Source: Gammaproteobacteria bacterium
GTDB taxonomy: Bacteria; Pseudomonadota; Gammaproteobacteria; BMS3Bbin11
Assembly (NCBI GenBank): GCA_030636465.1
Contig: DAOVWW010000014.1
Coordinates: 1 to 11,519, forward strand
DNA: 11,519 nucleotides
Reading direction: 5' to 3'
Positions 1,218 through 5,128 of this stretch are shown here, piece after piece; the first letter of the stretch is position 1, and the number at the start of each line of letters is the position of its first letter. The notes below the pieces were generated by a model, which saw nothing but the letters and a program-made list of their open reading frames with translations, searched no databases and was not told the DNA's origin. The translations under genes were made by a program, and so were the position numbers.

Positions 1218-2048
1218 TCAAATAATCTCTACAGCCAGGTTCGTATTCAGCCTGTATGGAATATGCTGACCTTTTCCGGGTTTGAACGCTGCAGACAGGC
1301 TTTTCATAACATGCTGCTGGGCCTGATCTACGGCCTCCTCCATATCCAAACCCAGTGCAAGACCTGCTGCACAGGCGGATGCCAGCGTGCACCCTGAGCC
1401 ATGGTATTCATAAGGCAGGCGCGGCCAGCACCACTCTTTGCTCTTTTTACCCTGCCGGTAGTAGCGGTTAATTACCTGTTCAGAATCTGCATGCGTTCCT
1501 GTGATTAAACAGTCACAGTTACTGTTTGCATTCGAAATTACGGCTGCGCAGGCATCTGCTGTTTCCACATCACCCTTAGCTGCCAGCGCAATGGCTTCGG
1601 GGATATTTGGCGTTACTAGACTTGCAACAGGTAACAGGTCTTCCTTAATTGAACTAATAAGTGAATGCTCACTTAGTGCATCATTCATATTGCTGCTCAT
1701 TACCGGGTCAACAACCAGGCTAATATGCGGGTAATTTAATAATACCTCCACCAATCCTAAAATTACCTCTTTATTCACTAGCATGCCGGTTTTTATAACA
1801 GATGGAGAAATATCCTCCATGACGGCTTGCATCTGTGCCCGTATCACTTCTGGATCGACCAGGTCATAACCCTTGACCGCAGAGGTGTCCTGAACGGTAA
1901 CGGCTGTTACCACAGGTGCAGCGTGGCAACCCAGCATGGATAAGGTCTGAATATCCGCACACAAACCTGCGCCACCAGAAGGATCCATTCCCCCAATGAC
2001 CATCACCACGGGTGGGGAAGCTGTTTTATTACTCATCGGTGTCGTCAC
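1218..2048 (-). CDS. thiD: Hydroxymethylpyrimidine/phosphomethylpyrimidine kinase
   Basis: ThiD is a cytoplasmic ribokinase-fold enzyme that phosphorylates HMP to HMP-P and then HMP-PP, the pyrimidine substrate of ThiE. The 276 residues show IGGMDPSGGAGLCADIQT (18-35), the DPVMSS segment (114-119), TPNIPEA (146-152) and the anion-hole and catalytic loop YHGSGCTLASACA (215-227, catalytic Cys220). The longest frame starts with GTG at 2048, which overlaps the upstream stop codon as GTGA and has AAGGA 4-5 nt before it. An in-frame ATG at 2036 (MSNKTASPP) has AGGTGA eight bases upstream and is an equally good start, giving 272 residues. Both keep the whole domain. Translation is probably coupled to the transglutaminase gene upstream and to thiE downstream. 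Confidence 0.96.
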   Translation of the reverse strand: MTTPMSNKTASPPVVMVIGGMDPSGGAGLCADIQTLSMLGCHAAPVVTAVTVQDTSAVKGYDLVDPEVIRAQMQAVMEDISPSVIKTGMLVNKEVILGLVEVLLNYPHISLVVDPVMSSNMNDALSEHSLISSIKEDLLPVASLVTPNIPEAIALAAKGDVETADACAAVISNANSNCDCLITGTHADSEQVINRYYRQGKKSKEWCWPRLPYEYHGSGCTLASACAAGLALGLDMEEAVDQAQQHVMKSLSAAFKPGKGQHIPYRLNTNLAVEII

Positions 2049-4075
2049 CTGTTCCTTTTTGGATGAAAACTTCTTACTGCCTGTGCCAGTTTTCTTTGCT
2101 GAAATGTACCAGTATTACCGGCATACCTTAGTTCAATAAATGTATTCGTCACCAGGCTTACCGGTGTTTTTAAATCTGGACGCAACTTGATAATTCTATC
2201 GGCAAATGCTCGCGGGCCTTCGTGTTTAAATTTTACGATACCTATTCCCTGTAATCGATTACAAAACTTTTGATATTGCACTATGGCCGGGTCAAAAATC
2301 TTTCTGCGATGGAATAACAACAAGGCCTGAAGACTGACCACTATAGACATAAGAATAACCAGCAGTATAACCATGTCTCTCCAGTTTGCCTGTTGGAACC
2401 CCAGCCATTTAAGTAAAAAGCTCTGGTTTTCTTTTCCAAAACCGATTACCCATTTATACCAGCGTGTGTTCACCCCATCCCAAAACATTGTCACACCCTT
2501 TAAGGTATTTGCCAGCAGTGACATCTGCAACATTATTTTTATTTTTTCGTCACTCAGGCTACCCGGCTCCTTTCCTTCTGCGACCAGCTGCCGGATGGCA
2601 TCAAGACCATACTCAATTCTCTCAGGAGCTACTGCCGCAGTAGGATCAACTCGCACCCATCCCTCTTCATCTAACCAGACTTCTGACCAGGCATGCGCAT
2701 CACTTTGCCTTACTATCATATAGTCACCCTGCTCATTCCATTCACCACCCTGATAACCTACAATCACTCTTGCAGGAATACCTGCAAGCCTCATCATCAT
2801 GGTGAAAGATGATGCATAATGTTCACAATATCCTTTGCGAGTATTAAGCATAAAATCTTCTACTGGATGTTCATCAAGCATGGGGGGCTGAAGACTATAG
2901 AAAAATGCATTATTACGATAATAGGCAAGGATGGTACTAATGTAGTTTTTATCACTACCGGATTGTCGATAAAGCTCACCAGCCAGACTTATCACCCGCT
3001 CGCCACTTACTGAACTTACATCAAGGTTTTTTGCCAGCGTATCATCTGATATGTCTTCATAATAATACTGGCTCACTGACTTAAGACTCTGTTGCAGCCG
3101 CTCTCGCAGGCCTCTGGCAGCACGTAAACTTCGACCGGGCCCCCACTCTAAATTGTCCGGCTTAAGTACAGGCATATCGAGTGCGAATACCCATTTTTTA
3201 TTTGACGCTTCCTGCAATACCGTATATTCAACTACATCTTTCAGCGAATATTTAAGTTCTGACACCGCAGTCTTTTTAAAGCGGCGCTCTTTCCACAGCC
3301 CGTGGTCATACTCCTCGAGCACCAGACCACGCCAGTAGCGTTGATTTGCAACGGGTACTGGTGATGAGAAATCCACTCTGAAGGCCACCTTTTCACTCAG
3401 GTTCAATTCATTAATAGTTCCAGGTTTCATCGTATCTGACATCCCCGTCAGCCCCGAGTGACTATCACCCGGTAAACCAAAGAGTCCGCCCTGCAGGCGC
3501 GGAAATAATACAAACAATAATGCGGCTACCGGCAAGCCCAGCATCAACATAGATGCTGAACGCTTAAGCATCGCTAACAGATGGTCCCTGCTTCCATGAT
3601 TCAAATACATCATGACGCTAAACAGGACTATTACTACCGCGAATAGATAGATTCCAAGCCAGAGCGCCTGCGAATATAGAAAGCTAGTTAAAATAATAAA
3701 CATGCATAAAAACACAACTAGCATGTAATCCCGCAAAGTTTTCAGCTCAAGAAATTTCAACATGGTTAAGGCGATCAGCATAGCAACGCCGGCATCACGA
3801 CCGAGCAATGTTCCATAGTGCTTATGCAGCATATATATGAGCGTAATCACACCAAGGAAACGAAGGACAGGCCCTGGCTGATGCGCTTTTCTATTAATTA
3901 TTAAGTATCGCCAGAGGAAAACAATGAATGCCAGCGCTGCAAACCAAACAGGTAATCTCATCAGGTGCGGGCTAATAGCAAGACATAATGCCAGCATTAG
4001 GGCATAAAGCGCCTGCCGGTCTGGCTGCAACTCCTCAGCATTGCTGATATGAAACCGCTTAAATAGACTAACCAA
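2045..4075 (-). CDS. tgpA: Membrane-anchored transglutaminase-like protein, TgpA type (DUF3488-TGase-DUF4129)
   Basis: This 676-residue inner-membrane protein has the TgpA architecture. A cluster of about six hydrophobic helices lies between residues 20 and 195. An extracytoplasmic region follows, with a transglutaminase/protease-like core carrying the Cys-His-Asp triad: Cys417 in RKGYCEHYASSF, His461 in QSDAHAWSEVW and Asp477 in WVRVDPTAAV. A C-terminal helix lies at about 568-588, followed by a cytoplasmic tail of about 90 residues. All three catalytic residues are present, so it is probably active; the substrate is unknown. The start is TTG at 4075, because an in-frame TAA lies only two codons upstream and the first Met is residue 27, already inside the first helix. 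The gene directly follows the MITE at 4083-4240, whose end carries an AGAGGTG. Its stop overlaps the thiD GTG by four bases. With the MoxR and DUF58 genes upstream it forms a recurrent bacterial module. Confidence 0.93.
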   Translation of the reverse strand: MVSLFKRFHISNAEELQPDRQALYALMLALCLAISPHLMRLPVWFAALAFIVFLWRYLIINRKAHQPGPVLRFLGVITLIYMLHKHYGTLLGRDAGVAMLIALTMLKFLELKTLRDYMLVVFLCMFIILTSFLYSQALWLGIYLFAVVIVLFSVMMYLNHGSRDHLLAMLKRSASMLMLGLPVAALLFVLFPRLQGGLFGLPGDSHSGLTGMSDTMKPGTINELNLSEKVAFRVDFSSPVPVANQRYWRGLVLEEYDHGLWKERRFKKTAVSELKYSLKDVVEYTVLQEASNKKWVFALDMPVLKPDNLEWGPGRSLRAARGLRERLQQSLKSVSQYYYEDISDDTLAKNLDVSSVSGERVISLAGELYRQSGSDKNYISTILAYYRNNAFFYSLQPPMLDEHPVEDFMLNTRKGYCEHYASSFTMMMRLAGIPARVIVGYQGGEWNEQGDYMIVRQSDAHAWSEVWLDEEGWVRVDPTAAVAPERIEYGLDAIRQLVAEGKEPGSLSDEKIKIMLQMSLLANTLKGVTMFWDGVNTRWYKWVIGFGKENQSFLLKWLGFQQANWRDMVILLVILMSIVVSLQALLLFHRRKIFDPAIVQYQKFCNRLQGIGIVKFKHEGPRAFADRIIKLRPDLKTPVSLVTNTFIELRYAGNTGTFQQRKLAQAVRSFHPKRNR

Positions 4076-4082
4076 AACTTAT

Positions 4083-4100
4083 GGGCACCTCTATAAAGTC
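4083..4100 (+). repeat. Left terminal inverted repeat of the MITE
   Basis: GGGCACCTCTATAAAGTC, adjacent to TTAT at 4079-4082. It matches the complement of 4223-4240 at 17 of 18 positions; the single mismatch is at 4095/4228 (A against the complement of G). Confidence 0.88.
4086..4092 (-). promoter_or_regulatory. Candidate ribosome binding site for the transglutaminase gene, supplied by the MITE end
   Basis: Minus-strand AGAGGTG lies inside the MITE terminal repeat, ten bases before the TTG at 4075. The spacing is on the long side. The pre-insertion junction, reconstructed by deleting the element, has no comparable purine-rich motif and would rely on coupling to the DUF58 stop. In the operon mRNA this motif would be base-paired with the other terminal repeat. 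Confidence 0.4.
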
Positions 4101-4222
4101 TGGGTATTTCAGATTACATTCAGAATTGTTCATATCAAGGCAAGGATCGCACGTAATAGCTAGCTCTTGCGAAGATTCTTAACGCAGAGATGGGCGATTA
4201 TGGATGTAGGATGAATATTCAT

Positions 4223-4240
4223 GACTTGATAGAGGTGCCC
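4223..4240 (-). repeat. Right terminal inverted repeat of the MITE
   Basis: Plus-strand GACTTGATAGAGGTGCCC, followed by TTAT at 4241-4244. On the operon transcript this copy is made first and could pair with the copy next to the transglutaminase start. Confidence 0.88.
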
Positions 4241-4243
4241 TTA

Positions 4244-5128
4244 TTACATCAGTGCCAGCAGAGTTAGACATTTTGACGCCTGTTTTTCATTATTGGATGG
4301 TAAAACTTTTTTTCCCGGCAGTTCCATGCCAAACCTGATTCCCTGTGCAGCGGCTTCAATTACCCAGCGTGTTAGCAGGCTGATGCGCTGTTCTTTCTCA
4401 CCCGCAGTATCATTCCACCTAAAAACCATTAATGGCATCTCACCGCCAGTAAACTCCTTACTATGCAAGCCTTTACCCCGCGCATAGGTTTTCCAGTCTA
4501 TGCGCTGAGGTGAATCACCCTTACGGTACTGACGTAAACCTGAAAAATCATCATTATTTCTTCTGCTCTGTATCTGAGTCATACTATTTTCACTATATCT
4601 GACTGGGAAGTCCTGCCAGCTGGACGGTTTTGGATAAACCAGACTTTTCTTTTCCAGCTGGGCTGGCTTACTCCATGAAAACAATAGGCCTATAGGAAAA
4701 CGGGTATTTACCTGTACTGCCGGTAATGTATGCCAGCCACGATGTTGTACCCTGGTCGTACATTCAATTTTCAAAGTTTCATGCGCAGAAAAATCACACC
4801 GCCTGCTTTTATCGCCCTTTATATCTATTCCTATATCAAAACGATCTCGCTGTGTCCCGTTCTTTAATACTAGCGAGTAACTAAGCAGTTCCCCGGCAAA
4901 CACGGGTTTACTCTCGCCATAAGTCAGGCATAAACCGTGCAAATTTCGATGCGTGTACAACATTGACACCAGCACCGTGGAGAACAGAGTAAAAGTCATC
5001 ATATAGGCCAGTGAGTTACTATAATTCACCGCTACCAGCAACATTGCCAGCAGTACCAGAGAGAAAATAAAACCATGCCTGGTTGGCAACATATAAAGGT
5101 TATCCCTGCTAAGGCACTGCTCCTGCAT
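4244..5128 (-). CDS. DUF58 domain protein, membrane-anchored
   Basis: A 294-residue protein of the DUF58 family, normally encoded beside MoxR ATPases and often described as having a von Willebrand A-like fold. Two hydrophobic stretches at about 18-35 and 40-57 suggest a membrane hairpin with the bulk of the protein cytoplasmic. The family signature lies at 194-226: DFSGLRQYRKGDSPQRIDWK, followed by TYARGKGLHSKEF. The start ATG at 5128 has AGAGG eight bases upstream; a later in-frame ATG (MLPTRHGF, residue 13) is possible. The 3' end is normal (CLTLLALM), with the TAA at 4244-4246 touching the MITE target duplication. It lies 26 bp after the MoxR gene. The molecular role is not established for the family; a partnership with the MoxR ATPase is inferred from the conserved gene order. 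Confidence 0.92.
   Translation of the reverse strand: MQEQCLSRDNLYMLPTRHGFIFSLVLLAMLLVAVNYSNSLAYMMTFTLFSTVLVSMLYTHRNLHGLCLTYGESKPVFAGELLSYSLVLKNGTQRDRFDIGIDIKGDKSRRCDFSAHETLKIECTTRVQHRGWHTLPAVQVNTRFPIGLLFSWSKPAQLEKKSLVYPKPSSWQDFPVRYSENSMTQIQSRRNNDDFSGLRQYRKGDSPQRIDWKTYARGKGLHSKEFTGGEMPLMVFRWNDTAGEKEQRISLLTRWVIEAAAQGIRFGMELPGKKVLPSNNEKQASKCLTLLALM

What the first reader, a model, noticed from the sequence alone, without database searches (positions are those of the whole stretch)
4079..4244. MITE-like element inserted exactly at a gene boundary inside an operon
Seen: 18-bp terminal inverted repeats (17/18), TTAT on both sides, no coding capacity, 158 bp. Deleting it with one TTAT restores a tight junction of 9 nt between the DUF58 stop and the transglutaminase TTG. 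The nearly intact repeats suggest a recent or still mobilisable insertion. The transposase family is inference; IS5-like is one candidate.
Basis: partly seen in the sequence, partly recalled or inferred. Interest (0 to 1): 0.72.

Follow-up and report, generated by a model that had tools for sequence, protein, structure and literature searches.

The report
Mobile hairpin element inside an operon
A 158-base mobile DNA element has landed exactly between two genes of a bacterial operon, and its relatives, found in many bacterial genera, keep a long hairpin that folds much better from one strand than from the other.

Summary
4083-4240 is a 158-bp element with 17/18-base terminal inverted repeats and a TTAT duplication, 3 nt after the DUF58 stop. 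Removing it with one TTAT leaves 6 nt (not 9) before tgpA's TTG. The host genome holds 17 other near-full-length copies. All 7 relatives examined have an empty site. One relative holds a 1254-bp IS5-type insertion sequence with nearly the same ends and a 4-bp duplication. So the MITE reading is right. Recent activity of this copy is not shown (nearest own-genome copy 92%).

A covariance model finds ~160-nt relatives in 58 of 321 gammaproteobacterial genomes and in one family of another class, with several kinds of terminal repeat. The body is a hairpin with strong compensatory change; one strand folds better in 190 of 190 distinct copies. In the host genus, copies between co-directional genes mostly have that strand antisense to the mRNA (43 against 6), more so among copies without an exact duplication. 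Outside the genus there is no clear bias (34 against 24). No Rfam family matched. Best reading: a non-autonomous IS5-type element with a selected, strand-specific hairpin. What selects the hairpin is open.

The parts
4079..4082 (.). left copy of the 4-bp target duplication, TTAT
   Evidence: family duplication length 4 bp
4083..4100 (+). left terminal inverted repeat GGGCACCTCTATAAAGTC (17/18 to the right one)
   Evidence: 16 forward and 15 reverse matches to GGGCACCTCTATNAA in the host genome at up to 1 mismatch
4086..4091 (-). Shine-Dalgarno-like GAGGTG reading toward tgpA; 12 nt between GAGG and the TTG (role inferred)
   Evidence: sequence; junction listing of 84 copies
4083..4240 (+). whole mobile element; + strand folds as one long hairpin (-71.0 kcal/mol as RNA, z -8.8) against -44.6 (z -4.2) for the - strand
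   Evidence: model R1 177 bits on + and 67 on -
4151..4172 (+). approximate apical stem-loop of the hairpin, near where long forms in two lineages carry extra hairpins
4223..4240 (-). right terminal inverted repeat
4241..4244 (.). right copy of the target duplication, TTAT
4244..5128 (-). upstream operon gene, DUF58 protein (294 aa); stop codon TAA at 4246-4244 next to the element
   Evidence: PF01882 24.8 bits, cut-off 23.4, over a short stretch only
2045..4075 (-). downstream operon gene tgpA (transglutaminase, 676 aa), TTG start at 4075
   Evidence: PF11992 and PF01841
5155..6075 (-). MoxR-type AAA ATPase gene in the same direction (same operon inferred from spacing)
   Evidence: PF07726

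Best explanation
The element is a non-autonomous mobile element (MITE) moved in trans by an IS5-type transposase that recognises GGGCACCTCTAT-like ends and duplicates 4 bp of TA-rich target (anatomy, copies, empty site and a full IS with nearly the same ends are shown; transposition itself is inferred). It inserted just after the DUF58 stop codon, so both reading frames are intact (shown). Its body is a ~160-nt hairpin kept by compensatory change across many genera, with pairing that leans on G.U pairs of one strand (shown). So selection probably acts on that folded strand, most likely as RNA (inferred). In the host genus, copies with the strongly folding strand in the mRNA sense appear to be weeded out between co-directional genes, while the opposite sense survives (bias and its link to missing duplications shown; weeding inferred). 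In this window the operon mRNA therefore carries the weaker strand. The outward-reading end carries GAGGTG, which may serve as ribosome-binding site for tgpA, freed when a ribosome terminating at the DUF58 stop opens the base of the hairpin (inferred).
For: Copies: 40 matches in the host; matches in 9 of 37 genomes, host included. Duplications: 41 of 84 against 10.5 expected, consensus C|TTAA|G; class-wide set 46 of 106 against 9.1. Empty site: 7 of 7 relatives. IS: G002, 1254 bp; a second in G232, 1272 bp, 51% identical transposase, identical 16-base ends GGGCACTTCTATTAAT, ATTA duplication. Fold: + strand lower in energy in 84 of 84 and 108 of 108, 190 distinct; strands were assigned by sequence or model, and sequence-only alignment agrees for all of both sets. 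On 26 diverse sequences 94.0% of cells paired, 51 of 64 pairs changed on both sides, covariation 0.493 against 0.197 shuffled, 0/500, slid versions at most 0.088. With pairs chosen by Watson-Crick matches only, G.U 407 against A.C 157 cells; G.U in excess in 27 of 29 genomes, 1 tie, 1 reverse. Orientation, antisense against sense: 41:4, 43:6, 39:6 without shared or doubtful insertions. Left neighbour 22/11 with exact duplication, 30/2 without, p 0.011.
Against: No matching IS was found in the host genome (71.8% complete). Orientation bias is not seen outside the genus (34:24, p 0.24), is weak in G003 (3:2), and with the strictest gene calls too few copies remain to test it (2:0). The direct comparison of antisense:sense, 14:5 with duplication against 25:1 without, gives p 0.069. 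The strongly folding strand is antisense here, so nothing shows that it is ever transcribed at this locus; no promoter match lies inside the element. On the genus tree G.U gains exceed A.C gains 104 to 58, but unpaired columns skew the same way, 36 to 28, so part may be mutation bias. The 26-sequence structure test uses a fold derived from the same sequences. The GAGG-to-TTG spacing of 12 nt is longer than ideal (recalled), and the motif lies in the paired end. An intact duplication is only a proxy for youth.
Confidence: 0.82

Rival explanations
1. An ordinary decaying MITE: the palindrome and its strand asymmetry are a founder effect plus mutation bias and arm-to-arm template switching, with no selection on the fold.
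For: Copies are fairly diverged (median identity 0.77-0.88 within G000, G002, G003, G004 and G006). Template switching in palindromes can make compensatory double changes (recalled). The skew at unpaired columns is in the same direction.
Against: G.U exceeds A.C in 27 of 29 genomes; all four Watson-Crick types occur at single pairs; length 156-163 is held in 106 of 108 class-wide copies; template switching makes Watson-Crick pairs, not strand-specific G.U pairs (inference).
Confidence: 0.2
2. The folded strand matters as single-stranded DNA (replication, transposition or recombination), not as RNA.
For: G.T is also better tolerated than A.C in DNA hairpins (recalled); the + strand is also the better DNA folder, -27.5 against -22.9 kcal/mol. 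Sense and antisense insertions are both common outside the genus.
Against: The energy gap is far larger with RNA parameters, about 26 against 5 kcal/mol. IS5-type DDE transposases act on double-stranded ends (recalled).
Confidence: 0.25
3. The orientation bias reflects a benefit of the antisense insertion (for example an outward promoter or translation enhancer for the gene at the left end) rather than weeding of harmful ones.
For: An ORF start lies within 20 nt of the left end in 29 of 84 copies against 11 of 84 for the right end; copies without a duplication are the most biased.
Against: No promoter match in the element; no clear bias outside the genus.
Confidence: 0.2
4. It is native regulatory DNA of the DUF58-tgpA junction.
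For: Exact fit between the two genes.
Against: Empty in 7 of 7 relatives and repeated elsewhere in the genome.
Confidence: 0.01

Closest known systems
YPAL / RU-2 of Yersinia (passages seen in PMC2229807 and PMC2267715)
   Same: About 168 bp, predicted structured RNA, empty and filled sites; insertion next to stop codons is recalled.
   Different: YPAL duplications vary from 3 to 26 bp and its inverted repeats are internal; ours are 4 bp with IS5-type terminal repeats. YPAL is listed for Yersinia and Erwinia; ours spans many genera.
ERIC / IRU / RU-1 (passages in PMC2229807, PMC2267715)
   Same: Single long hairpin, co-transcribed between genes; orientation matters for mRNA stability there.
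   Different: 127 bp, TA at termini; different ends and duplication.
Correia / NEMIS (passages in PMC2229807, PMC10969869)
   Same: MITE in transcripts; RNase III cleavage reported there.
   Different: 24-bp repeats with TA ends, listed for Neisseria; RNase III cleavage untested here.
QMITE1/2 of Coxiella burnetii (passages in PMC5896051)
   Same: Gammaproteobacterial MITEs whose transcripts fold; QMITE2 is 150-190 bp, mainly in 3' untranslated and intergenic regions; its authors also report hits in alphaproteobacteria.
   Different: QMITE2 duplications are 7-11 nt, QMITE1's 2-3 nt; sequences not compared here.
dsrA-intron MITE of Ca. Thiomargarita nelsonii (passages in PMC4853749)
   Same: TATAG direct repeats, one-mismatch inverted repeats, long hairpin, many copies; could be a relative.
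   Different: Sequence not seen here, so not compared; its authors found no strong candidate parental IS.

Membership tests
MITE (bacterial) | short, no long ORF, terminal inverted repeats | tested here: met
   158 bp, 17/18; ORFs of 20-33 aa only
MITE (bacterial) | many dispersed copies with target duplications | tested here: met
   41 of 84 exact 4-bp duplications, 10.5 expected
MITE (bacterial) | empty site in relatives | tested here: met
   7 of 7
MITE (bacterial) | moved by a transposase in trans | not testable with these tools
   needs a transposition assay
IS5-type non-autonomous element | ends shared with an IS5-family element | tested here: met
   G002 1254-bp IS, NF033581; G232 IS
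IS5-type non-autonomous element | duplication of the same length as that IS | tested here: met
   ATAA on both sides of the IS; TTAT here
IS5-type non-autonomous element | partner IS in the same genome | tested here: inconclusive
   none found in G000; assembly 71.8% complete
Deletion derivative of the G002 IS | shares sequence with the IS beyond the ends | tested here: not met
   blastn of the whole IS in 8 genomes matched G002 itself and two G005 fragments, no MITE copy at E 0.001
YPAL / ERIC / Correia | their ends and duplication type | tested here: not met
   4-bp duplication and GGGCACC ends against the table passage of PMC2229807
Any Rfam RNA family | score above the curated threshold | tested here: not met
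   0 matches for the window and for 20 loci with relatives

The most novel reading that the evidence does not exclude
The body is a mobile structured RNA: an ancient ~160-nt RNA fold, conserved across Gammaproteobacteria and one further class, that spreads by wearing the terminal repeats of whichever IS5-type transposase is at hand, and whose + strand RNA does something the element needs.
Probability: 0.35. Interest if true: 0.82.

Novelty: new variant of a known kind. Interest (0 to 1): 0.62.

Why it matters
Most bacterial MITE families in the passages I saw are listed for one genus or family and treated as IS remnants. Here one body is recognisable over 45 of 242 genera sampled, keeps its length and hairpin by compensatory change, prefers one strand, and appears with different ends. 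That makes testable whether a bacterial MITE can carry a selected RNA of its own. The genus-level orientation bias also gives a view of how operons tolerate insertions.

Tried and rejected
Native junction DNA: rejected by empty sites. Known RNA family: no Rfam match (at E up to 10 one weak match to an unrelated viral family). A general orientation rule: I first took the bias as a property of the element; the class-wide set did not show it, so it is claimed for the host genus only. A partner IS with GGAACCTCTGA ends: not found in 30 loci (of 34 PF01609 matches, in 8 of 14 genomes). One IS in G206 has AGACCTTTGCACGA ends like the two G089 copies; its flanks are unresolved. Other collections: the window element in plasmids, one class-wide copy in plasmids and phages and one core pattern in viral contigs gave no match. 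Print: searches showed no description of this family that I could recognise; only open-licence PMC papers are held, most results were seen as listings, and passages were seen of six papers (PMC2267715, PMC2229807, PMC5896051, PMC10969869, PMC4853749, PMC4383904).

Rows dropped and limits: the 84-copy set keeps nhmmer matches with both ends within 3 mismatches and flanks present, from loci I fetched (210 matches on both strands, 168 kept, 84 copies). It includes one copy from another family (L037) and two doubtful ones (L028, second L048). A1 used 78 of the 84. The 108-copy set was picked from the best-scoring listed matches plus G007, not at random; two of its rows have the sequence of rows in the first set: L148 is the same place as L037, and L139 (G192) has the sequence and flanks of a G002 copy and is probably a misbinned contig. 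G192 is therefore doubtful in the counts 58 of 321 and 27 of 29. One search used 106 of the 108. A3 used 25 of those plus the window. One search left out six rows as shared or doubtful insertions; the 43:6, 41:4 and 14:1 counts include shared insertions. Gene directions come from ORF length or a codon model, not annotation.

Full report
Observation. The window element is as described: 4083-4240, TTAT on both sides, 17 of 18 terminal bases in inverted repeat, above 40 of 40 shuffles. It sits between the stop of a DUF58 gene and the TTG of tgpA, next to a MoxR-type ATPase gene in the same direction. Without the element and one TTAT, 6 nt would separate stop and start. ORFs of 20 aa or more that touch it are 20-33 aa long.

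It is a mobile element. The host genome (G000, 1.87 Mb, 71.8% complete) gives 40 blastn matches, 17 of them other near-full-length copies; the nearest are 92% identical. Matches occur in 9 of 37 genomes searched, host included; all six other genomes of the genus have at least one. Among 84 end-to-end copies 41 have an exact 4-bp duplication, 10.5 expected by cross-pairing flanks. Matches of 3, 5 and 6 bp are not in excess; 2-bp matches are (17 against 5.6), in part because TATA and ATAT targets repeat. The target reads C|TTAA|G. The DUF58-tgpA junction is empty in 7 of 7 other genomes (G001-G007); against the nearest, G003, the flanks line up without gaps by eye. G003 and G001 match the records JAUVSB010000009.1 and JARFQE010000072.1 (the second titled an Arenicellales MAG) at 100% over 5 kb, which places the host genus.

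Its mover. G002 has a 1254-bp IS (L067 1320-2573) with ends GGGCACCTCTATTTA and GGGCATCTCTATTTA, ATAA on both sides, and an IS5-family transposase. G005 has two contigs that end in a 77% relative of one end of it (137 bases). A more distant IS in G232 has identical GGGCACTTCTATTAAT ends and an ATTA duplication. A blastn search with the whole G002 IS found no MITE copy, so the MITE is not a simple deletion of that IS. None was found in the host assembly (its one PF01609 protein is IS1182-type).

The body is a conserved hairpin. The window's + strand folds at -71.0 kcal/mol (z -8.8), the - strand at -44.6 (z -4.2). The + strand is lower in 84 of 84 genus-set copies (mean -71.5 against -46.9) and 108 of 108 class-wide copies (-77.5 against -57.1); the sets share two sequences, so 190 are distinct. 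Strands were assigned by sequence similarity or the model; sequence-only alignment to the window element gives the same strand in all of them. On 26 diverse sequences, 51 of 64 pairs show changes on both sides, and each of the five measures beats all 500 shuffles and all six slid versions; the fold tested came from the consensus of these same sequences. With pairs chosen on Watson-Crick matches alone, which favours neither strand, G.U cells outnumber A.C cells 407 to 157; G.U leads in 27 of 29 genomes, with one tie and one reverse. In the genus tree, over 57 pairs common to both strands' folds, single changes from Watson-Crick pairs went to G.U 104 times, to A.C 58, to other mismatches 100, and 39 were double changes to another Watson-Crick pair. 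Unpaired columns have a milder skew the same way, 36 to 28. I read this as selection on the folded + strand with some mutation bias possible. RNA is favoured by the larger energy gap, but DNA is not excluded.

The family is wide. Model R1 matches 58 of 321 gammaproteobacterial genomes (45 of 242 genera) at E up to 1e-4, four of them of the host genus; at most 9 candidates per genome were scored, so copy numbers are lower bounds. One of the 58, G192, holds a contig with the sequence and flanks of a G002 copy and is probably misbinned. In the phylum sample 20 of 249 genomes match at 1e-6: the host, three gammaproteobacteria, and 16 from one family of another class. Class-wide copies are 156-163 nt in 106 of 108 cases. 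Ends differ: GGGCACCTCTAT, GGAACCTCTGAT, GGAAGCTCTGAT and AGACCTTTGCAC types, with more than one type in single genomes such as G105, G137 and G150. Of 106 class-wide copies with both flanks, 46 have exact 4-bp duplications, 9.1 expected. No match was found in Rfam, nor in the plasmid, phage and viral-contig searches made. Near-identical copies at different sites (99.4% in G206, 98.7% in G002) point to recent movement in some genomes, not of the window's copy.

Orientation and operons. In the genus set, copies between two genes of the same direction have the + strand antisense 41 to 4 times (p 9e-9; 24 to 1 and 2 to 0 with stricter gene calls), 37 to 3 and 43 to 6 by two other methods, and 39 to 6 without shared or doubtful insertions (by genome G000 12:1, G002 11:1, G004 6:0, G006 7:2, G003 3:2). 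An ORF stop within 12 nt before and a start within 20 nt after the element: 14 antisense, 1 sense, the 14 including three pairs of shared insertions. Copies with an exact duplication are less biased (left neighbour 22/11) than those without (30/2; p 0.011; right neighbour 21/14 against 28/4, p 0.014); the antisense:sense comparison itself, 14:5 against 25:1, gives p 0.069. That fits removal of sense insertions after the event but is not proof. In the class-wide set it is 34 to 24, p 0.24, so this is a trait of the host genus and perhaps a few other genomes (G105 6:0, G262 6:1, but G296 0:4).

Possible tolerance device. The outward-reading end is ATAGAGGTGCCC. In several copies a start codon follows directly, for example ATATG right after the end in L013, L016, L040 and L054. 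Both ends carry the motif, so it does not explain orientation. A ribosome finishing at the upstream stop could open the end pairing and free it. This is inference; at the window the spacing from GAGG to TTG is 12 nt.

Verdict. MITE moved by an IS5-type transposase: well supported. Strand-specific conserved fold over many genera: supported by sequence statistics. Function of the fold, RNA or DNA, and the weeding model: open and testable.

Noticed in passing
L122, L124, L125, L126, L128, L129, L130; also L123, L127 (coordinates): Tiny elements of 30-38 bp made of two fused terminal repeats; 7 of the 9 fetched have an exact 4-bp duplication. Either internal deletions of full copies or independently mobile mini-elements.
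   Followed up: partly
L020 1505-1714, L022 720-928 (host genome); L155 1501-1708, L238 701-908 (G150): Long forms of 208-210 nt in two lineages carry dissimilar ~50-nt additions near the hairpin apex; in L020 and L155, the two folded, these form extra stem-loops.
   Followed up: partly
L016 and L054; L042 and L093; L047 and L085; L055 and L133: Pairs of copies in different genomes with similar flanks: likely shared old insertions within the genus.
   Followed up: no
L139 (G192 C235) and L077 (G002 C25): Same element sequence and same flanks in genomes of two families: probably a misbinned contig in G192.
   Followed up: partly
L256 1005-2208 (G206): IS of about 1.2 kb with AGACCTTTGCACGA ends, the same end type as the two G089 copies of the family.
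   Followed up: no
L028 1432-1592 (G000 C288): A host copy with GGGAACCTCTGA ends instead of GGGCACCTCTAT, so two end types occur in the host genome too.
   Followed up: no
window 4365-4390, +: Terminator-like hairpin with T-rich tail inside the DUF58 gene on the opposite strand; 2 such sites were found in the 501-base region, shuffles give 0.5 on average; probably chance.
   Followed up: no
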